From positions 1,521,809 to 1,585,808 of the forward strand of contig JAGVRJ010000012.1 of assembly GCA_019059635.1 (NCBI GenBank): DNA of 64,000 bases, written 5' to 3'. A model generated the notes under the pieces. That model was not told where the DNA came from. It saw nothing but the letters and a program-made list of their open reading frames with translations, and did not search any database. The position numbers were made by a program, and so were the translations under genes. This stretch comes from Proales similis. Its lineage: Eukaryota; Rotifera; Eurotatoria; Ploima; Proalidae. Position 1 is the first letter of the stretch, and every line of letters starts with the position of its first letter. Shown here in pieces: positions 13,711-64,000 of the stretch.

Positions 13711-16700
13711 ATGGACAGCTTTTCCGAATCGTTTGGCTTGGGCGCCTTAAGCCGCATGGATCAGAACGATTCAACAACCCCTTTCAAGTCGGCAGTTAAT
13801 CGGTCAAAATTTCTCCTCAATGAAATAACTATCGACTCTCCCTCCGGCTTCAATCGAACTTGTCAAGCCAATGATTCAAGAGTTTTCTCTCAGTCATTTG
13901 TTGATTCGGGTAAGAAGCAACCGAGTCGTTTTTAATCATCCATCATCACACAACAAGCCTCTTTCTTCATTAGCAAGCAGCAGTGGAGTATTCGCTCAGT
14001 TTAAAATGGACACATACAAGCACACTGAAGACGAGCACAACCTAAGTGAGTTGTTGAATTCTTATCGCGATCAATGTGACGAGCAGATCAAGTTTGGCGA
14101 GCAGCGGCTCGAGCAAATGGCGTCGAATTGGTCAAAGTAAATTTCTTCGAACTAGTTTCAAACAATTAAAGCAAATTTGCTTATTTCAATCACAGAGAGA
14201 GAGCAAGAAAGCAAAAAGCTGAAATTGAACAATACGAAACTGAGCGAAATTTGTGGAATATCATCCACTCGTTTCTCGACGATGAAACTCGGAGCCAGAA
14301 TTCAATGGAAACTCATCAACAAGAATTCAATGAAGGCCTTAACGAACACCTAATTGTAGAAAATTTACTCAAGAGCAACGCATTCGTGCGCCGCGTCAAG
14401 TTAGTGCTAGATTGGCTGGAGCAAACATTTGCGCGGTCAGAACGCATGCGAATGGCGCGTGAGAAAATGGCTTCATTCACCGAGAAAAGCGCCAATTGGG
14501 ATAATACTCTCTTTCACTTGAGAAAGGCAACTAACAATAGCGCCTTTTCTGGAAGAGATCTCGTTAACGAACTGGTTAGTGTCTTTTTATTTCGCCCACT
14601 GGTTTTGCTTCTTTTCCAACAATTTCGTCTATTTTCAACTCTTAAGGACCCAGATGCTCCTGCAAGACAGGCAAAACCACTGGACCACGCCGATCAAGAA
14701 GACGAGCTTCGAATCATGGAATTTATATTTTACTTCATTCGTGCGGGCGACTTGAAAGGAGCACGTGACTTTTGCTTTAAAATTGGCCAGCCCTGGCGGG
14801 CAGCCACACTTGAAGGATTTCGAACATACCGTGACGAGAACTTCAATCGCCCGACGTTTCACAATCAAAACAAGTCGATTGAAATGCTTCAAAGCGAAGG
14901 AAACTTTAATCGTGACATTTGGCGTCTAATTGTACAAGGTCTTGTCAACGAGGTCTGTCTCGCTTTTTTGGAAATTCGGCCAAATTCTGTGCCTAGCTCA
15001 GTTAATTGTTCTCAAGACCAACTTCAGTTCATTTGAAAAAGCTGTTTACGCAGCTCTGGCCGGTTTCATAAGCCCTGTACTTCCAGTTTGCCGAACATAC
15101 ACAGATTACGTATGGACTTTTTTCAATGCACTCTATAAGAATCTCATCGAACGCGAGATAAGGTAAGGCATTCGTTTTGCTAATTTCAACTAACTCCCTG
15201 CCCGAATGCGTTTGAAATACTAATCTACTGAACAAAAAAGACGCATCATCACCGTCAGAGAGTTCACAACTCTTCCTTTCGACGCGCTGGAAGAGAATAT
15301 ATTTGAAGACATTGAAAAATGGACAAACGTGGAAATAATCGCGCGAACTTTTGATCGCATACAAAACTTGATTCAAAACAGTGGAATGAGCTCACTTGGC
15401 TCGGTTTTGGCTTCTATGCCAAGTCAGGCAATAAGCGAACTTAAAAAGGATATACAGCGGCCATTTTCTACAATTCTCAAGCTCGTTATTATATCTGGCA
15501 TTGAAGGCTTTCGAATCAGCACCTCAGGTAATAAGCACACAAGTCGTTTCGTTAGGCGTTCAACGAATTCAAACTTTGGATTTAGAAACGCTCGCTTTTG
15601 CTCGAACGGTTCTTAGTGACCAGACAGTTTGTGGTAACCTGCTTCGCTTCTCTACACATTTGGCCTTGTTTTACCTGGCCGCATTCAATCTGAGGGTAAG
15701 ACGTTGGCAAAACAGACTCAAGCATCTGCTTCTAATTGATATTTAACAGGACGATTCCTTTGTCGCCATTTTGGACCGCTACGTTCTTTATCTGGGAGAG
15801 ATCAAGCAAAAAGAAATTGTCGCTTTCTACGCCTCATATTTACCTGACGAGCTCAAGATTCGAAGATATTCAGCACTTCTCAAAGGTTTACCTTTTTTTC
15901 TCAATGGACTTTTTTTTCAATGATGCGATTGTCAATTTTCATCAGATGTGACCGACCAAAAGGAGAGATTGAGGCTTCTCGAACTGGCCAAAGAGCGAAA
16001 CATGCCGATCGAAGCGATTACTCAGAATATTGTGGAAAGCATCAGCCGCCAAGCAGTCTGGAGCGCACCAGAGCTGACCATGAATCAGACCAACCTTTCC
16101 AACACGTTCATGATTCAAAAATCGACCGAGCGATTCGGCCCGGCCGACGAGAGAGGCTTGAGCGAAGAGGATCGAGTTAAAATAAATGCACTTGATTGGG
16201 TGGCTTTCGAGCCAAGGCAACGACTCAAGCTGCTTGAATATGCCAACTTGACAATGAGATACTTCATGCTCGAGCGAAAGAGTCTCGAAGCCGCACAGGC
16301 GGTTTGCAAAAAAGTGCCCGACGACACCATCCAGAGTGTAGCTCTCGAGTTCAGCTCTGGAGGCTCTCGTTCTTTGAGTCTCGAACTCGAGCAGATTGTT
16401 TATCATCTGCCTTGGCACGTCTCAAACAGCATCAAAGAGTTCTTTTGCTACCGGGACTACATTCAGGCGTTGAGACACTACAACGAGTGGTTTGAGTTCT
16501 ACCATAAAGAACAGCCGCAAAAGCCAGAGCGAAAAGAGCGAAATGAAGCCGAAATGACATTTGCCGATCGAATGGCTTTTGACTATCAGATGAAGCAGTT
16601 TCAGGACACACACGCCCGCTGGATGGCACGTGCAACTACGCTTGCGGATAAAGTCAAATCAAGCTTCTTTGCCCTATTAAAATTCCCATTCGGTGGCTGG

Positions 16701-17048
16701 ATGGCCGATATGAACTCGAGCGACAAGTCGGGCGTCGATCGACGGCAGCGAACGAGCGACGAAGTCGATATGGAGCAGAGCGAGAGTGACGATGATAAGC
16801 AGCGTCGTCTCGAGCAATTGAGTGCGCTACGAAAATACTACTTGCCTAACATCTGTTTTATTTTGCTCGACATGCTAGAAAAAATGGGTCTCAACTTAGA
16901 AGAGCTGCGACTTTGCGAGCTAGTTGCTGACGAACGCTACGGTCTCTATAATCTGTTTGATGCAAAGCAGTTAAGCTGTTTCTTAGATAAAACTGCTGAC
17001 TCTTCAATTCGCCTACTAGATCAAAACTCCGATTTTCTTGCCTATTAA
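13711..17048 (+). CDS. NUP107: nucleoporin Nup107
   Basis: Nine exons can be joined in phase: 13711-13912, 13974-14136, 14196-14574, 14647-14952, 15017-15162, 15241-15527, 15586-15695, 15750-15885 and 15946-17048, with introns of 57-75 nt. Together they encode a protein of about 940 residues, the usual Nup107 size. The diagnostic stretch is DPDAPARQ...DELRIMEF followed by IRAGDLKGARDFC and GQPWRAATLEG, then FEKAVYAALAG and VCRTYTDYVWTFF, all matching the Nup84/Nup107 alpha-helical domain. Nup107 is a scaffold subunit of the Y-complex of the nuclear pore and binds Nup133 through its C-terminal helices. The fifth exon start (15017) was chosen because it restores the frame; its donor (GTCTGT) is unusual. 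AATAAA-like signals lie around 17200, just before the next gene. Confidence 0.93.
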
Positions 17049-17310: not shown

Positions 17311-18792
17311 ATGGAAAGCAATCCAGTCGGATTCACTTTAAATGAGGATGGCCATCTCTGCGTTGACGGTACTCCGCTTTCCAGCTTCATCAGAGACTAC
17401 ATTGATGAAGATGATCTGCTGGCCGAAAGCGAAATAAAGCTACGCGACGATCTGTCACTTGATCCGAGTGGAACCAAACTCATCACACCATTTTTCATTT
17501 ACAGTCCGAACAAGCTGCGCGCGAACATGAACGCATACCAACAGGCGTTCAATAAGGAAATTACTCAAAAACTCGGCATCGAAACTATCATTTCTTATTC
17601 GATGAAGGCAAATTTCAATCCGAGCATATTGAAAATGTTCCGTTCTATGGGCAGCTGGGTATCCTTGGTCAACTACAATGAACTGCGTGCAGCGCTTAAA
17701 ATGGGCTTCAAAGGGGACAATCTGATATTTAATGGAAACGGCAAAACGTTTCCTGAAATCAGAATGGCCATTCAAGCTGGCTCTTATCTCAACGTGGACA
17801 GCGACTTTAACCTCAAAGATACAATCCGAGTGTGCAAATATCTTCGTGAGCAAAAGCTTGACGCTTGTCTTCCAGCCAAGTTGATTATTCGCATCAAGAA
17901 ATCATTCGGAACAGCCGGTGGCATTCATTCGTATTTAAACACTTCAATTGAAACGTGCAAATTCGGTGTTGCCGAAACCGAGTGGGAGTCACTGCTAGAA
18001 GTAATCAAAGCAAATCAAGCAGACCTCAAGCTTGTCGGTTTTCACTCCCACGTCGGGTCAACCATTAAAACCGAAGAGGTATTCGAACAAGCTGTTCAAG
18101 GCCTAATTGGCATCACAAAGATAGCAATTGAGCAACACGGAATAGAAACAATAGAGTTGCTCAACTTTGGCGGGGGCCTTGGCATTGACTATGAGCATCA
18201 ATTTAGCAAAACTGCCCAAAACACAAATTTCATCAAACCGTTGCCATCACCGCAAGACCTGGCAGCCGCGATTTCTCGCAATCTTAACCTCACTGGTCTT
18301 GAGTGTAAAAACATTCGAATTGTGGTCGAGCCAGGTCGCTCGTTGGTCGGCGATGCGGCGATTCTCATTTCGAAACTGATCGGAGTCAAACGAACAAGCT
18401 ACCGCAACTTTTTGGTTGTTGATGCTTCAATGTGCGAATGCATTAGACCTTCATTGTATTCGGCCTATCACTACGTGAATTACATTGAGCCGAGCAAGGA
18501 TCCTGAAAATCTTGAGCCACCGCTTTTGTTCGACGTCGTCGGACCCGTATGTGAATCAAGTGACTTTATCGGCCTTGATCGTTTTATGCTGGTTCCTACC
18601 GAAAAGGACATGTCACGTCCGGTTTACATGGCCGTCTGGGACGTGGGCGCTTACTGCAATGTAATGCAAATGAACTATAACCTTCACCGAAGACCAAGCG
18701 AAGTGTTTTTTGACAACGGCCGCCTGTTTCTAAGCCGCACTGCTGACACGCTGGATCAAATTCTTAATCCATACGTTGACTATCGTTCGTAG
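17311..18792 (+). CDS. lysA: diaminopimelate decarboxylase (LysA-type), single exon
   Basis: This 493-residue PLP enzyme of fold type III catalyses meso-diaminopimelate to lysine plus CO2 in the families it matches. Visible hallmarks are the PLP lysine in YSMKAN (K99), the DAPDC-type substrate loop IHSYLNT...CKFGV (205-220), HSHVGS (245-250), the glycine loop GGGLGI (287-292), EPGRS (340-344), RPSLYSAYH (379-387), the catalytic pair in GPVCES (C414, E415) and DVGAY (Y448). These distinguish it from ornithine decarboxylase. It is about 70 residues longer than bacterial LysA, with an N-terminal extension and an insert before residue 60, and no clear transit peptide. The ORF has no intron, while Nup107 just upstream has eight and the next gene many. 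A polyadenylation-type AATAAA follows at ~18880. Animals generally lack this step, so horizontal acquisition is the leading explanation. The flanking metazoan genes argue against simple contamination. Confidence 0.88.
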   Translation: MESNPVGFTLNEDGHLCVDGTPLSSFIRDYIDEDDLLAESEIKLRDDLSLDPSGTKLITPFFIYSPNKLRANMNAYQQAFNKEITQKLGIETIISYSMKANFNPSILKMFRSMGSWVSLVNYNELRAALKMGFKGDNLIFNGNGKTFPEIRMAIQAGSYLNVDSDFNLKDTIRVCKYLREQKLDACLPAKLIIRIKKSFGTAGGIHSYLNTSIETCKFGVAETEWESLLEVIKANQADLKLVGFHSHVGSTIKTEEVFEQAVQGLIGITKIAIEQHGIETIELLNFGGGLGIDYEHQFSKTAQNTNFIKPLPSPQDLAAAISRNLNLTGLECKNIRIVVEPGRSLVGDAAILISKLIGVKRTSYRNFLVVDASMCECIRPSLYSAYHYVNYIEPSKDPENLEPPLLFDVVGPVCESSDFIGLDRFMLVPTEKDMSRPVYMAVWDVGAYCNVMQMNYNLHRRPSEVFFDNGRLFLSRTADTLDQILNPYVDYRS

Positions 18793-19074
18793 TTATAGTT
18801 CGTATACTCCTGCCGTCAAGTTCCCAAGAATTCACTTTAACTTGAGCTTCGCATTAAAATTGCATTCCAGTGTAGAATGAATAAATGGTTGAAATTTCCT
18901 CAACTTATTTGATATAATCTGAGCTTCTCAGCTAATAATTCAAAAATGAAACGAAATTCGGACATTTGAGAACGCAATCAGCTTGGTTGCTATGGAAACA
19001 AAATGTCACTGGACATTATGCTGACCATGGTCTTCGCTCGTGTTTTAATATAAATTCCGGCTGATTAGGCTGAG

Positions 19075-28307: not shown

Positions 28308-29357
28308 TTAGAATGATTCAAACTCTTTGTCAAATCTCGGCATTGAGCTGCTCTTGATAACTTCAAAATCAAATTTATCGAATTCCTCATTAAGCTGGAA
28401 GGGAGCTTTTTCTTTCTTGCAGTAAACCCCAAGCCAATCGATATTTTTAAACCAGGCATGACGACGTATTTCACTGACACCGGTGCGCAAGTTCCCGTAG
28501 CGTTTAGTTAAATCTTTCTGAATAAGATTGCGGCAAAGATCGCGAAGATTTTCCGAAAAGTGCGAGGGAAATCTAAGTTTGGCTCCAATTATTTTCTCGT
28601 ATATCTCAATCGGATTATCGGCAAAGAAAGGAGGATAGCCGGCAACCATCTCGTAGATGATGATGCCGAGAGCCCACCAGTCGACGGCCTTGTTGTAGCC
28701 GCGAGAGAGGATGATCTCCGGCGCAAGGTACTCGGGAGTGCCGCACAAAGTCCACGTGCGGTCCTTGAGCACCTTGGCGAAGCCAAAGTCGGTGAGCTTG
28801 ATGTAGCCTTGCGAGTCGTAGAGCACGTTCTCGGGTTTCAGGTCTCGGTAGACAATGTTTAGGTAGTGCAGGTACTCGAAAGCGAGCACGATCTGTGCAG
28901 CGTAGAAGCAGGCGTGTTCCTCCGAGTAGCGACCGGTCTTGCGCAGGTGCGTGAACATCTCGCCGCCACTCACGTACTCGAGCGCCATGTACAGGTTCGA
29001 GTTGTCCTTGAAGGCGTAGCTCAGCTTAACAATGAACGGAAAGTCGATCGACGCCAGTATGCGCTTCTCGTTTATCGTGTGCTCGATTTGCTTCATTTTC
29101 ACCAAATGTTCTTTGCTTAAACATTTTACTGCATACTTTTCATTTACTGATCCTTTTAGCTTGGCTTTAAACACTTTTCCAAAGCTCCCGGAACCAATTA
29201 CTTTCTCCAGCTCAAATGAGTTCAAATTCACAGTTGTAGGTATTTGCGCTGGAGATTCGTACTTTTTTATAAATTCAGTTTTCTTTTCTTCCAAATACTC
29301 ACTGCATTCCTGCTCGTACTTGCTAAGCTTTTGTTTCGACGATGGTGTCTGGCCCAT
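28308..29357 (-). CDS. PKA catalytic subunit, divergent copy A
   Basis: An intronless 349-residue AGC kinase. MGQ at the N-terminus fits N-myristoylation. The glycine loop GSGSFGKVF, the YRDLKPEN catalytic loop, DFGFAKV, the activation loop [14 protein letters not shown] and the terminal hydrophobic motif FESF are all intact, so it should be an active cAMP-dependent kinase. The N-terminal ~90 and C-terminal ~100 residues diverge strongly from mammalian PKA-C (for example [24 protein letters not shown]). The middle (29102-28618) is almost identical at DNA level to the same part of copy B at 30303-30787. The ATG at 29357 is the only plausible start. It lies 635 bp downstream of copy B in the same orientation. 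Confidence 0.95.
28618..29102 (-). repeat. gene-conversion tract, copy in PKA A
   Basis: This 485-bp stretch matches 30303-30787 base for base except T at 29058 versus G at 30743. The match stops abruptly at both ends, where coding sequence on both sides diverges. It is visibly more GC-rich than the flanks. Confidence 0.95.
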
Positions 29358-29992
29358 TTCAATCTATAAATCGATAATTTGTTTAATTTTTTATTATTCA
29401 AGGGCTTGTTTTTTTTTCAATTGCGAATGTGAATTCAACAGCTGGTTTTCGAAATTTGAATCACAACAGTTTGGTGAGACCCACCCGTTATTGGTGGGTT
29501 GCAAAACAAATATTCATTCTTATATACAACCAAGAACACCTCAAAATAGAATGATGTTCTAAATTTAATGTCTTAAGTGGGCGACAGACTTTTGTATTCT
29601 CTTATTTCATAAAATTATTTAATGCTCGGTTCAACGTCTTCGCACAAATCAAACTTTCGCTTTTCCTGACTGTGTAGATTGGCGAGCTGGAACGTATACT
29701 CTTACGAAACAGTGTAGAGCCAAACCCTTTTTTATTCTATTTCATAATTTCCCGATTTCTGTTTTCAATTTTGTTATATAATCCTGCTTGGTTTAAGTTT
29801 CTTTTTATAAAAAATGTCTTTCTTATCGTTCTGTTAATGCTTTCTTCTAGTTATAGATGTTGCGTTTTTGAGCGGCTTGACACCTTTCAAATAATATGAA
29901 ATTCCGTTTGATAATAAATTCTCAAGAGTTAAATTAATACGAGTAAAGAATAAATAATTTTTATTAAATAACTCCGAATCGGATGCGAAGAA
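29358..29992. promoter_or_regulatory. spacer between the two PKA genes
   Basis: 635 bp, AT-rich, no coding evidence. It must contain the promoter of copy A and the 3' UTR of copy B; AATAAA on the minus strand lies near 29958. A short perfect inverted repeat (ACCCACC/GGTGGGT with a 7-nt loop) sits at 29482-29503. Confidence 0.4.
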
Positions 29993-31078
29993 TTAGAAAT
30001 CGGCAAACTCTTTAGCATACTTTTCAGTAGAGGAAATGTAAAGTGGTTCTTCGTCGTAGGTTTCATAATCTTCCTTAGGAATGAACGGCGGTTTTATGCG
30101 GCGCTCGAAAACGGCCATCCAGTCGGTGCGGTGAAACCATTTGTGGTGCTTTATGTCGGAAACGCCGTTTTTAAGATTACCGATCCGCTTAGTCAAATCG
30201 ACTTGGAGGAGATGCTTAAGTAAATCCTTTAAATCAACACTGAAGTGGGAAGGGAAACGTAAATGACCGGAAACGATTTTTTCGTAAATTTGAATCGGGT
30301 TTTCGGCAAAGAAAGGAGGATAGCCGGCAACCATCTCGTAGATGATGATGCCGAGAGCCCACCAGTCGACGGCCTTGTTGTAGCCGCGAGAGAGGATGAT
30401 CTCCGGCGCAAGGTACTCGGGAGTGCCGCACAAAGTCCACGTGCGGTCCTTGAGCACCTTGGCGAAGCCAAAGTCGGTGAGCTTGATGTAGCCTTGCGAG
30501 TCGTAGAGCACGTTCTCGGGTTTCAGGTCTCGGTAGACAATGTTTAGGTAGTGCAGGTACTCGAAAGCGAGCACGATCTGTGCAGCGTAGAAGCAGGCGT
30601 GTTCCTCCGAGTAGCGACCGGTCTTGCGCAGGTGCGTGAACATCTCGCCGCCACTCACGTACTCGAGCGCCATGTACAGGTTCGAGTTGTCCTTGAAGGC
30701 GTAGCTCAGCTTAACAATGAACGGAAAGTCGATCGACGCCAGGATGCGCTTCTCGTTTATCGTGTGCTCGATTTGCTTCATTTTCACAATGTTTTCTTTC
30801 TTTAATATTTTTAAGGCATATTTCTGCGATTTGTTTTTCTTCAAATTAGTTATTATCACTCTGCCGAAACTTCCTGTGCCGATTGTTCGATTAAGGTCAA
30901 AGTCGTTTAAGGATATGCTATTTTGTCCGGTAAATTCGGGTCCTACGCTTTGTTTATATTTTTCCTCGAATTCTTTCTTTTTCTGCTCTAGATATTGCTT
31001 GACAACTCCATCATATTCGCTTTGACCAGTGACTGATTTGGATGCTGTACTACTGCCCTTTGTATTGTTCTGGCCCAT
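29993..31078 (-). CDS. PKA catalytic subunit, canonical copy B
   Basis: Starting at the MGQ codon at 31078, this intronless exon encodes 361 residues. It is closer to mammalian PKA-C than copy A across the C-lobe and tail ([41 protein letters not shown] end). All catalytic motifs are present: GTGSFGRV, K in [24 protein letters not shown]. The Gly at position 2 fits myristoylation. The reading frame stays open upstream of the ATG to an acceptor-like CAAG at about 31209, which suggests a longer isoform (next entries). Confidence 0.95.
30303..30787 (-). repeat. gene-conversion tract, copy in PKA B
   Basis: Partner of 28618-29102; one mismatch in 485 bp. It covers the kinase core from the alpha-C region through the activation loop to the APE-alphaG region. 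Confidence 0.95.
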
Positions 31079-33484
31079 CGCTTTGACGCTTGTGTTCTTT
31101 AACCACTTGAGGCTTTCGGCAGCAGCAGCTTGAGATTGTTTTTCTTCTTTTTGGCCCGTCTGATGCTTGAGCTCTGCAGATGCTTGTGAGCTGTTGCCGA
31201 GTTTGAGCAACCTTGCGTGTCGTTAAAGCGTTAGAATTCAGACCATAAAAGGTTAAAATAAAAAGCCAATGGAAAGAGATTATAGCACAAGCCATGATGC
31301 GCGCGTCTGGTTCGGATTCAAAACTTTCTCAAATCTAATGAGGCATAATTCGTGAGCAATGTTATTATGTGGGATCGCTTCGATGAACAAATTCTGCACC
31401 CCGAGGTGTAAAGGTATCAATAAAGTGAAGCCTGCTTTTGAATGGTGTGTTGAACGCCTTCACATTATTTTTTGGCGAAAGGGCATTTGCAGTCGAAATA
31501 ATAGCAGCAGGCCATCCAGCTCCCTGCGTCTAATCAGGCTTAATTCTATCTGTGGTGAACAACTTTAAAAGCTGTAATTGCGAATGAAATGTGCGAAATG
31601 AACGAATAAAGATGCGTGAGCGCGCACTACCAGTGATCTCAAGTACAACAAAAGCGTTCATACTCCTACTCGAATAGATTAGATAGAACGGGCGCTAATG
31701 CATGATGGGCCAGCTATCATTCGAGCGAGAATTGATATGCAAAACATGAATGCAAAGAGGTTGGAAGCAAGCCTAGTTGATTAGATAAGTTGGAAAATGC
31801 TCAGAGAACCTATGGCATCAAGTTCTTTCATTTTGGTTGAAGGTATTGAAAGAAAAAAATAGCTATAACATATTAATGAGCGCGGCGAACGTTACTGAGC
31901 GATAAAGCGCATCTATTTGACGCTCGAATGAGAGTCGATTAATGGGACCATTTTACCTTTCTGCTTTCTTTAAAATTGACATTGCAAACGTCTCATTAAT
32001 GGAAGAGGCGGCCGCTCAAAGAAACCATATCTTGCCAAGCTTCTGCTCTTCTTCACTCTGGAATCATTTAGAATTCATTAGAAATTTGAATTACAATCGC
32101 TATCGCGTGCCCTGAACGATTTTCTAACACCATATGACAGCACGCAGATCTTTATTTTAGCCAAAGCAGGTTGTGAGGCTTGACATGCTTGTCTGTCTGC
32201 TTAGCTATTCGCCCTTTTTCGTGTGTCTTTATGGCGAGGTGTGGGTGTTTCGGCTACTTCATTACGATTCTCTAGCTATGATACTCGCTACAAATTCTTC
32301 CCCAAACAACTCAACCTTGAAGTATAATAATTTTGATAATTTTGCTCTTCAACGATCGATTTAGGTTGCGAAAAATATTTTTTAAGGTTTTTGATCATGG
32401 AATAGAATACGAAATTCAATGCGAATGCGTTTGATTTAAATTAAAAATTTCAATTAAATTTACCCCTCGTCAATATACGAAATTCCAGCAATTAAAGAGA
32501 GCGAGGCTGATGATCGCTTGCGTGCTTCGATGCTCTCCGTTTGCAGAGATGGAGCAATGAGCTTGTCAAATGAGTTTGATATGAACGTAGTTTTGGCAGC
32601 TTGTCGAAACGAGCTTCTTTTTTTTTGCGTGACATTTTTGCTGCATTTCGACTCAGCATTCGCTTCATTATTTGGAAACTTTCTATTCTCTACTGAATTC
32701 GATACGCAAGCCATCAGTGATCTCTGATTGAATCCAAAACGTTCAGTTCTCAAAATACGGATTTCTGCGCCTTAGAAAATATGATATAGCGTTTCTCATG
32801 CTTCTATTAGCGTTCAGCCGACATTTAAACAGCGTCTGTTTTTGTGAACGTCAGTCTTGCGCTTTTAATGATGCTGAAATAGCAATCCTTGTAGTATAAG
32901 AAGAAAGCACAGAAAGATAAGATAGAAACTCATGATGAGCTCGACTCAACAGCTTCGCTCGTCATTCTCTTTTCTTAACTCTCGCTTCTATTTAAATGCT
33001 CGTTTAATGAAGCCCAACTGTTGGCATTTTTGCAATCGCAAGCTGGCAAATTCGCAAGTCATAATAAAATGCTGAAAGTTGGCTCAATTTCAAAGTAAGA
33101 ATTTAAACTTGGTGCCATTGAATAATTGATAAGACCGCATCGTTCAGTCTTGTGCTATGTAACTTATACTTATAATATCACTCACCTAGTTTTGAAACGA
33201 GACCAGCCTGTATTGTCGAGATCAGCTTTTATCTCCTTGGATCCCTTTTCAGTGCGAGACTGTGAACTGTGATGATTTTCACCGTTGAGGCTTTCGGAAC
33301 CAGGCTTTTGTTTTGGACCATGGAGGCTTCGACTCAACCTGTTTGTGCGGCCTGATTTGCTTGAGCCAGCGTTTTCTTGAGATTCTTTCCTGGAAGAAGC
33401 CTTTACAGAGCTGAATGCGCCCAGACCGAACTTGTAAAAAGCTGAGTCTTTGAATTTGCGGCTGCCATTTACCGCCTCTGACAT
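31079..33484 (-). CDS. probable upstream coding exons of PKA B (long isoform)
   Basis: Three open segments on the minus strand can be joined in phase. The exon 33484-33186 begins [11 protein letters not shown] and ends at a GTGAGT donor. The exon ~32742-32457 starts at a TTTTGAG acceptor and ends in YIDEG at a GTAAAT donor. A 5' extension of the PKA B exon (to ~31208) adds 44 residues before MGQ. The segments are Ser/Lys-rich with no domain, and contain two PKA-type target sequences (KKRSSF, RKRSSAS). Phases agree at both junctions, but the introns (about 430 and 1250 nt) are long for this window. Alternative N-termini from upstream exons are known for PKA-C genes. It could instead be a separate small gene. 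Confidence 0.45.
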
Positions 33485-62401: not shown

Positions 62402-64000
62402 TTAGTATTGGCCAAGCCTGTTTATGAGGTCCTGGGCCCGACTTCTCGGCTTTTCTATCAGCTCCAAGTCGTTCGTTCTCGGCTCCCGTCTGCATTTTGC
62501 GAGACGCTTGACTAAGATTGCTAAGAGCGCTATCATAATCATTCCCGTTCCAAGAACGAGCGCCGTTCTGTATCCTATTATTTTCTCGACGACCTCTGCG
62601 AAGTCTGCTGTGCTTTGGACTTCGTCGTCTACTAGCTGTTCTCTTATCTTTTCTGACAGCGTCTCTTTCACTCCCTCGTTCACGTCTTCTATATGTTTGA
62701 CGAGCGAGTGTTTAAAGTCGTTGAGTTCTTTAAAATTATGCGACGCGTAATTAAATGACTCGCGTCCTTCCATCTTCGTCCTGATTATGTTGATTTTCCT
62801 TCCAACGTTCGAAAGCACTGTTCCATTCTTTACGTTAATGAAATTCATTTCGTCGCATCTCTTTGGTGTGCTTTTCTGAGTTATAAAATTCCCGTCTGTA
62901 AGCCAGCCTGTTTGGTTGGCCTTGCCGCTTTTAAAAGAGACAAATGCTTCTCTCGTGCAGAGTGAGTTGTTCAGGATCGTCACTTCTTTGGCGTCCGTGC
63001 ATTCCGCTTTGAACATCTCTCCCGCTTCAGAGTAAACTACCCAGTCTTTAAGGATGTTTTCTATGAATCCATTAAAGCTGCTAGAAGTAAGGCGCAGTAC
63101 AGTTTCTGCTAATCTGCACATTTCTTCTGACAGCGCCTGCCATCTTCTTCTGTTTCTTTCTTCCAGGTGGAATGTCGCTGCATCTATGCTCATTATTGTT
63201 AGTGTGTTAACCGAGTCTTGGTTTACGTGCGTCTCCATGTTTTTTGCTTCTGACTTGTTGACCACCACGACCCCTTCTGTCGAGTTCCATCCTTCGACGC
63301 CGCATGCGTTGATCTTCTGGGTTCTCCTGATGAGGTAGTCCTGGTCAATCCACAGGTCGTTGTATTGCTTCATCCTCCTTTCGGCTATTTTCGTGAAGCT
63401 GCAGTTCTTTATTATTTCCTTTTTCCAAACGAACAGCCCTTCTTCTGTCTTGCAGAAGAGTCTATCCGCTCTGCAGTATGCGTTTCTTCCGAAATGGATC
63501 GGTTTATCCTTGTATTTGCCTTTGACCGACGTCTTCCTAGTTCTGCAGTTGAGTTTTTTGAAGATTTTGGTTGTCCAGAGCTCGAAATCGACGCTTGGGT
63601 CTTCCTCGTAGCTACAGTACTCCTCGTCGCACTTCATCGCCTCTTTTCCGCATCTTCCAGCTATTATCAGGGACCAGCAATCCCCCTCTGTCGGTTCCAT
63701 GACCACTTCGTTCCTGTATTTTTCCCACTTGCCGAAAAACGGTTTGTAGGTGGTTATGGTGATCTCTGAAATCCTACAAAAGTAAGCGGTTCCGTCTACT
63801 TCATACATCCTTCTCTCCAGTAGTGCCACGTCCGTTTCGAAGCCTCCGTGATCGCCTCCAATCTTCATGCAGTACTCCTCCTGGATGTTTATCACTTTAT
63901 CCGTTATTTTGCAAGCTTTAAACTCTCCTTCTAGTGTTAGTGCTTTCGCCAGTGGTGCGAGTAACCATATCAGCAGTATTGCTGTGAGTCCTGTGTGAGT
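62402..64000 (-). CDS. env: envelope-type glycoprotein gene of an LTR retrotransposon (partial)
   Basis: The frame is open from the right edge (64000) to the stop at 62402, 532 codons in view. The start codon is just outside the window. The segment nearest the edge is a hydrophobic signal peptide. A Cys-rich ectodomain with several N-glycosylation sequons follows (for example NSTE, NCSF, NQTG, NGTV), then helical stretches, one transmembrane helix near the C-terminus (GMIMIALLAILVKR) and a basic cytoplasmic tail of about 40 residues. This is the layout of a class-unassigned viral-type fusion glycoprotein captured by an LTR element. A furin-like basic run (RNRRRW) sits mid-protein. The origin (baculovirus F, phlebovirus Gc, chuvirus/gB-like or other) cannot be settled by eye. 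The frame is intact, so the copy looks recent. Confidence 0.75.
   Translation of the reverse strand, partial: THTGLTAILLIWLLAPLAKALTLEGEFKACKITDKVINIQEEYCMKIGGDHGGFETDVALLERRMYEVDGTAYFCRISEITITTYKPFFGKWEKYRNEVVMEPTEGDCWSLIIAGRCGKEAMKCDEEYCSYEEDPSVDFELWTTKIFKKLNCRTRKTSVKGKYKDKPIHFGRNAYCRADRLFCKTEEGLFVWKKEIIKNCSFTKIAERRMKQYNDLWIDQDYLIRRTQKINACGVEGWNSTEGVVVVNKSEAKNMETHVNQDSVNTLTIMSIDAATFHLEERNRRRWQALSEEMCRLAETVLRLTSSSFNGFIENILKDWVVYSEAGEMFKAECTDAKEVTILNNSLCTREAFVSFKSGKANQTGWLTDGNFITQKSTPKRCDEMNFINVKNGTVLSNVGRKINIIRTKMEGRESFNYASHNFKELNDFKHSLVKHIEDVNEGVKETLSEKIREQLVDDEVQSTADFAEVVEKIIGYRTALVLGTGMIMIALLAILVKRLAKCRREPRTNDLELIEKPRSRAQDLINRLGQY

What the first reader, a model, noticed from the sequence alone, without database searches (positions are those of the whole stretch)
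17311..18792. A complete diaminopimelate decarboxylase embedded between animal genes
Sequence shows every LysA hallmark (PLP lysine K99, HSHVGS, GGGLGI, EPGRS, RPSLYSAYH, C414-E415) in an intronless ORF between intron-rich Nup107 and a many-exon coiled-coil gene. Established knowledge: animals lack the DAP route and obtain lysine from diet. Inference: horizontal acquisition with retained catalytic residues, so possibly used to make lysine from bacterial meso-DAP. No other lysine-pathway gene is in view, so it may act alone on dietary or symbiont DAP.
Basis: partly seen in the sequence, partly recalled or inferred. Interest (0 to 1): 0.88.

Follow-up and report, generated by a model that had tools for sequence, protein, structure and literature searches.

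The report
Lone lysine-making enzyme in rotifer
A tiny marine rotifer carries an intact enzyme that should turn a bacterial cell-wall amino acid into lysine; the gene looks like an old animal heirloom shared with other rotifers, clams and snails rather than a recent theft from bacteria.

The parts
17311..18792 (+). lysA: diaminopimelate decarboxylase CDS, 493 aa, single exon
17605..17607 (+). codon of Lys99, predicted Schiff-base lysine for PLP
   Evidence: invariant; K in 19 of 19 monogonont-clade and 10 of 10 bdelloid-clade rows; role recalled from the family
18043..18060 (+). HSHVGS motif (residues 245-250)
18169..18186 (+). GGGLGI motif (residues 287-292), PLP-phosphate loop
   Evidence: role recalled
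18193..18243 (+). lengthened loop (residues 295-311) with Thr at +7 from Y294: signature shared with mollusc/annelid/brachiopod LysA
18328..18342 (+). EPGRS motif (residues 340-344)
18445..18471 (+). RPSLYSAYH motif (residues 379-387), substrate carboxylate binding
   Evidence: role recalled
18550..18555 (+). Cys414-Glu415, contributed across the dimer to the partner's active site
   Evidence: role recalled
18880..18885 (+). AATAAA, candidate poly(A) signal 88 nt after the lysA stop
   Evidence: pattern only
14251..17048 (+). upstream neighbour Nup107 (two exon ORFs matched; the last ends 262 bp before lysA)
   Evidence: PF04121, 132 and 170 bits
19075..19810 (+). start of the downstream many-exon coiled-coil-like gene (extent not worked out)
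   Evidence: sequence read only

Best explanation
The gene encodes a working PLP-dependent meso-diaminopimelate decarboxylase, inherited by P. similis from the rotifer ancestor and most likely from an old spiralian or bilaterian LysA, and kept after (or without ever having) the rest of the DAP pathway. It would remove CO2 from the D-centre of meso-DAP to give L-lysine in the cytosol. The meso-DAP would come from eaten bacteria and algae: free pools, or cell-wall stem peptides freed by the animal's own lysozyme and peptidoglycan amidase and by food or gut bacteria. Shown: intact ORF, family, fold, retained catalytic residues, orthology with other rotifers, no upstream pathway genes among those searched. 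Inferred: substrate, reaction, location in the cell, source of DAP, benefit.
Confidence: 0.65

Rival explanations
1. Old horizontal transfer: the common ancestor of monogonont and bdelloid rotifers took LysA from a bacterium or alga, separately from other animals; later vertical in rotifers.
For: AU tests do not reject rotifers grouped with deep bacteria (p 0.055; 0.126), with algal/plant/poribacterial rows in the larger set (0.084) or outside other animals (0.103). In the FastTree of 264 rows the smallest clade holding Proales and five other bilaterians spans 247 rows, algae and Poribacteria included. Other animals did gain lysA by transfer: whitefly and mealybug independently (PMC4607527 passages), a coral entry assigned to chlorophyll-c algae (PMC4878875 passage).
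Against: Best mixture-model trees put rotifers within the animal clade (99/96 and 98/95; 99/91; 91/79); rotifers plus algal/plant/poribacterial rows is rejected in the cleaned set (p 0.011); loop signature shared with spiralians and absent from all 36 non-bilaterian rows. The FastTree run lacks the mixture model and is prone to long-branch pull.
Confidence: 0.18
2. The enzyme has changed substrate: it decarboxylates another D- or L-amino acid (for example D-lysine, D-ornithine or a modified amine precursor).
For: Long terminal branch of the window protein (0.72-0.95), N196K and five other odd residues, no endogenous DAP route found.
Confidence: 0.12
3. Assembly join or bacterial contamination.
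For: No raw reads could be inspected.
Against: Megabase contig; 262 bp from Nup107; GC3 0.495 within the 0.377-0.596 of nine neighbouring coding stretches; homologues in Brachionus and bdelloid records; closest bacterial match 38% by tblastn, 42% in the alignment.
Confidence: 0.01
4. A decaying relic without function.
For: More departures from near-invariant residues than in the other rotifer rows.
Against: Open frame and catalytic residues kept at about 50% identity to the nearest relatives; compare the hemichordate paralogue P0233, which has lost K99, R343 and C414.
Confidence: 0.04

Closest known systems
Diaminopimelate decarboxylase (LysA, EC 4.1.1.20; TIGR01048; PDB 6n2a/6n2f Arabidopsis, 2qgh H. 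pylori, 1twi M. jannaschii)
   Same: Same two-domain PLP fold, same motifs, best structural matches.
   Different: In plants and bacteria it is the last step of a complete pathway (recalled); here none of the upstream genes searched was found. 36% identity to the Arabidopsis enzymes; longer loop at 295-311; N196K.
LysA of other animals: Brachionus calyciflorus/plicatilis, bdelloids, bivalves, gastropods, chiton, Owenia, Lingula, amphioxus, hemichordates
   Same: Single clade in the mixture-model trees; shared loop signature in spiralians and rotifers.
   Different: 47-48% (Brachionus) and 35-39% (bdelloid, clam, amphioxus, annelid, brachiopod) identical to the window protein; the sampled others mostly keep the near-invariant residues that the window lost.
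Horizontally acquired lysA of whitefly Bemisia tabaci (PMC4607527, passages read)
   Same: LysA in an animal genome, intronless there too.
   Different: Assigned there to Planctomycetes, independent of the mealybug gene, and complementing a symbiont's pathway; the rotifer gene is shared across rotifers and has no known symbiont partner.
DAP-pathway genes of choanoflagellates (PMC7971027, passages read)
   Same: Lysine-pathway genes in close kin of animals, with orthologues of such amino-acid genes stated in sponges and cnidarians.
   Different: There dapF, asd and a lysAC gene are reported; in P. similis only lysA was found.
Rumen ciliates said to turn DAP from eaten bacteria into lysine (recalled, no source seen; one search did not find it)
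   Same: A bacteria-eating eukaryote salvaging DAP would work the same way.
   Different: Not an animal; recalled only.

Membership tests
Diaminopimelate decarboxylase (LysA) | Both Pfam domains of the fold-III decarboxylases | tested here: met
   PF02784 126 bits, PF00278 58 bits
Diaminopimelate decarboxylase (LysA) | Score over NCBI's equivalog cut-off for lysA (297.9 bits); an annotation threshold set for prokaryotes, not a biochemical feature | tested here: not met
   277 bits, 7% below the cut-off, though far above every rival model (next 163); B. plicatilis 318.8, B. calyciflorus 302.4, P0001 325.6 pass. Filing as LysA rests on the residues, fold and orthology in the other rows
Diaminopimelate decarboxylase (LysA) | Catalytic and substrate residues: PLP lysine, HxH(L/V)GS, GGGLG, EPGR, RPxLY, CE, GAY | tested here: met
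   (residue roles recalled)
Diaminopimelate decarboxylase (LysA) | Overall fold closest to solved LysA | tested here: met
Diaminopimelate decarboxylase (LysA) | Decarboxylates meso-DAP to L-lysine | not testable with these tools
   needs an assay
Functional DAP lysine pathway | Upstream genes (asd, dapA, dapB, dapL or dapF) present | tested here: not met
   ASADH-C, DapB_N, DapB_C, DapF and aspartokinase 0 matches; the one DHDPS match lies in a HOGA1-like gene; DapL none over cut-off. dapC, dapD, dapE and ddh were not searched
Recent bacterial horizontal transfer | Nested among bacterial sequences to the exclusion of animals | tested here: not met
   Window with deep bacteria p-AU 4.6e-6; with algal/plant/poribacterial rows 2.5e-4
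Animal (bilaterian) LysA clade | One side of a branch with other bilaterian LysAs | tested here: inconclusive
   Supported 99/96, 91/79; alternatives for the whole rotifer clade not rejected in four of five AU tests; not recovered by FastTree
Ornithine decarboxylase | Closest to animal ODC | tested here: not met
   Two separate ODC-like genes in the genome; human ODC E 5.7e-4 against Arabidopsis LysA 1.9e-73

The most novel reading that the evidence does not exclude
LysA is an ancestral bilaterian gene kept on its own, without the DAP pathway, in microbe-eating animals (rotifers, bivalves, grazing snails, chitons, brachiopods, amphioxus, acorn worms), where it salvages meso-DAP from bacterial walls to make lysine; for these animals lysine is not strictly a dietary essential.
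Probability: 0.4. Interest if true: 0.85.

Novelty: new member of a known kind. Interest (0 to 1): 0.54.

Why it matters
Lysine is textbook-essential for animals. An enzyme kept intact across rotifers and, apparently, several bilaterian phyla, without (in the one genome searched here) the pathway that feeds it, points to a lysine route that starts from bacterial cell-wall DAP. That would change how amino-acid budgets of suspension feeders and grazers are modelled, including aquaculture rotifers and bivalves. It would also turn 'when did animals lose lysine synthesis' into a testable question about a remnant that may still work.

Tried and rejected
Rejected: contamination or assembly join (neighbours, GC3, homologues in other rotifers). 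Rejected: a different animal decarboxylase (two ODC-like genes are separate). Rejected: intronlessness as evidence of transfer. Rejected: the DHDPS match as dapA; an adjacent exon-sized ORF of the same locus matches human HOGA1. Weak or failed: DapL gave three fragments under cut-off, not followed up; an NlpC/P60 endopeptidase was sought and not found; the 264-row FastTree did not recover the animal clade, told as evidence against. Distribution in insects, nematodes and most vertebrates was not tested: the three protein searches list only the best 120 hits each. Other animals' genomes were not searched for DAP genes. dN/dS could not be run (no coding DNA of close relatives). Synteny in Brachionus could not be read. 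The Foldseek 'pdb' search did not run. Paper searches on LysA listed no paper whose title or abstract start shows LysA in rotifers or as a shared bilaterian gene; some lists were partial (20 of 673, 20 of 9,401), and the library holds only open-licence PMC papers.

Full report
WHERE IT IS. The window is the end of contig C12 of a 32.7-Mb, 15-contig assembly. A published table gives Proales similis 32,722,929 bp, 15 contigs and a figure of 2,428,301 in the N50 place (PMC11954553, passages); contig C6 here is 2,428,301 bases long. The assembly here has 32,716,893 bases. The organism is therefore almost certainly P. similis, a minute marine monogonont rotifer.

OBSERVATION. 17311-18792 (+) is one 493-aa ORF from ATG to TAG. 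Pfam gives PF02784 and PF00278. NCBIfam ranks lysA first at 277 bits, under its 297.9 cut-off; the next model has 163. B. plicatilis, B. calyciflorus and the nearest metagenome protein P0001 pass that cut-off. In the PDB the best sequence match is Arabidopsis LysA. Nup107 ends at 17048, 262 bp upstream; other animal genes lie on both sides. There is one lysA in the genome; two ODC-like genes are separate.

NOT A SIGN OF TRANSFER. Both ODC-like genes are also long single ORFs (443 and 505 aa), and so are a 1687-aa ORF with a cadherin domain, a PB1-C1-kinase ORF (aPKC by recall), two further kinase ORFs (PKA-like by recall), a release factor and a homeobox gene in the window. GC3 of lysA (0.495) lies within that of nine neighbouring coding stretches (0.377-0.596). 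Lack of introns and composition carry no signal of recent bacterial origin.

RELATIVES. The search of 5.8 billion proteins (best 120 of 3481 listed) gave first unnamed metagenome proteins at 44-51% identity, B. calyciflorus 47% and B. plicatilis 46%, then at about 30-41% clams, bdelloids, abalone, amphioxus, a sponge, a red alga and many unnamed proteins. Searches from a clam protein and from an animal profile (best 120 listed each) added more bivalves, gastropods, a chiton, Owenia, Lingula, acorn worms of three genera, an ostracod, a sturgeon, algae and Poribacteria. In one alignment the window is 47-48% identical to Brachionus, 39% to a bdelloid, 35-38% to other bilaterians, 37-42% to algae, sponge and Poribacteria: raw identity beyond rotifers does not by itself point to animals.

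TREES., quick: 93 rows (window, 44 named and 32 unnamed of the 246 proteins held by then, 16 of 80 bacterial loci; 18 loci were chosen, two gave no usable ORF); 58 rows, whose named members are all bilaterian animals, form one side of a branch at 99; 22 near-duplicate or long rows dropped, Arabidopsis added, 72 rows, careful mixture model: the 46 bilaterian rows are one side of a branch (99/96), rotifers one clade (100/99), monogonont and bdelloid clades each 100/100, rotifers with bivalves and gastropods 98/95; deep bacteria and the sturgeon left out, loop columns removed, 59 rows: rotifers with bivalves and gastropods 99/91; 42 slower rows: same order, bilaterians 91/79. Groups within mostly follow zoology (gastropods, bivalves, acorn worms, bdelloids, monogononts). 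Of the 29 rotifer-clade rows used later, the window, two Brachionus and six bdelloids are named; 20 are unnamed and placed by the tree. Rotifers as sister to bivalves is not the accepted species tree (recalled) and shows limited resolution.

TESTS AGAINST. AU p-values: window with deep bacteria 4.6e-6; window with algal/plant/poribacterial rows 2.5e-4; all rotifers with deep bacteria 0.055 and 0.126; all rotifers with algal/plant/poribacterial rows 0.084 and 0.011; rotifers outside other animals 0.103; bilaterians plus sponge as one clade 0.077. A 264-row FastTree without mixture model, rooted on deep bacteria, did not recover an animal clade: the smallest clade with Proales and five other bilaterians spans 247 rows, algae and Poribacteria included, and sturgeon and ostracod fall outside it. 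So a transfer particular to Proales is excluded by these tests; a transfer into the rotifer ancestor is disfavoured but not excluded.

LOOP SIGNATURE. Between Y294 and P312, algal, plant, sponge and poribacterial rows have 6-9 residues and 14 of 15 deep-bacterial rows 5-9 (one 31); rotifer rows have 14-21. A loop of at least 12 with Thr seven residues after Y294 is found in 28 of 29 rotifer, 14 of 15 mollusc and 2 of 2 annelid/brachiopod rows, 4 of 5 unnamed rows in the animal clade, 0 of 6 deuterostome, 0 of 1 ostracod and 0 of 36 non-bilaterian rows. This was chosen after seeing the alignment, so it is support, not a blind test; the tree keeps its shape without these columns.

WHAT FEEDS IT. 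Whole-genome six-frame searches, which read exon by exon and could miss a gene cut into small exons, found no DapB (two domains), DapF, aspartokinase or aspartate-semialdehyde dehydrogenase C-domain. DapL gave nothing over cut-off. The one DHDPS match is an exon-sized ORF; an adjacent ORF of the same locus matches human HOGA1 (E 4.8e-13), so I take the gene as HOGA1, and it shows that a gene with introns can be found. dapC, dapD, dapE and ddh were not searched. The animal has two i-type lysozyme loci and a PGRP-type amidase gene whose sequence keeps the GHRDGGSTECPG stretch of zinc amidases (meaning of the motif recalled), but no NlpC/P60 peptidase. Meso-DAP is the substrate of LysA (recalled) and part of Gram-negative walls (PMC8689515, passage), so no epimerase is needed.

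KNOWN WORK. Whitefly and mealybug lysA are independent transfers (PMC4607527, passages). Choanoflagellate DAP genes are listed as transfer candidates, with orthologues of such amino-acid genes stated in sponges and cnidarians (PMC7971027, passages). A coral lysA is listed with chlorophyll-c algae as donor (PMC4878875, passage). A survey discusses loss of essential-amino-acid synthesis in animals (PMC3287585, passages). Two bdelloid transfer papers do not mention diaminopimelate in their main text (PMC3499245, PMC4632278; term searches). Public records already name the B. plicatilis protein diaminopimelate decarboxylase and the Mytilus proteins lysA, so the presence is annotated; the paper searches listed no discussion of it.

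VERDICT. Real, intact, functional-looking, apparently alone, and old rather than newly acquired. Substrate and benefit remain inference.

Noticed in passing
protein P0141: A vertebrate LysA: 'diaminopimelate decarboxylase 1 [Huso huso]' on a 41-Mb contig, catalytic residues intact, pairing with amphioxus at 92/79 but placed elsewhere by FastTree.
   Followed up: partly
protein P0233: Second LysA of the acorn worm Glandiceps has lost K99 (Gln), R343 (Ile) and C414 (Gly): a likely dead or repurposed paralogue beside an intact one (P0137).
   Followed up: partly
protein P0213: Ostracod Notodromas LysA gene model with a repeated C-terminal piece and GNAT acetyltransferase repeats; very long branch, possibly a model or assembly artefact.
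   Followed up: partly
bivalve, gastropod, chiton and brachiopod LysA, loop after Y294: The same loop has grown to about 60-96 residues in many molluscs and Lingula, a large unexplained insert beside the active-site domain.
   Followed up: no
window 28308-31210 (-): Two adjacent kinase genes (PKA-like by recall) share a 300-nt stretch at 98% identity, hinting at gene conversion or a young duplication.
   Followed up: partly
window 62402-63895 (-): A 497-aa ORF near the contig end with a C-terminal membrane-anchor-like stretch and no Pfam match; looked at only.
   Followed up: no
L008 (G000 C7): A second ODC-like single-ORF gene (443 aa) beside the ODC-like gene on C6; could be an antizyme-inhibitor-like copy.
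   Followed up: no
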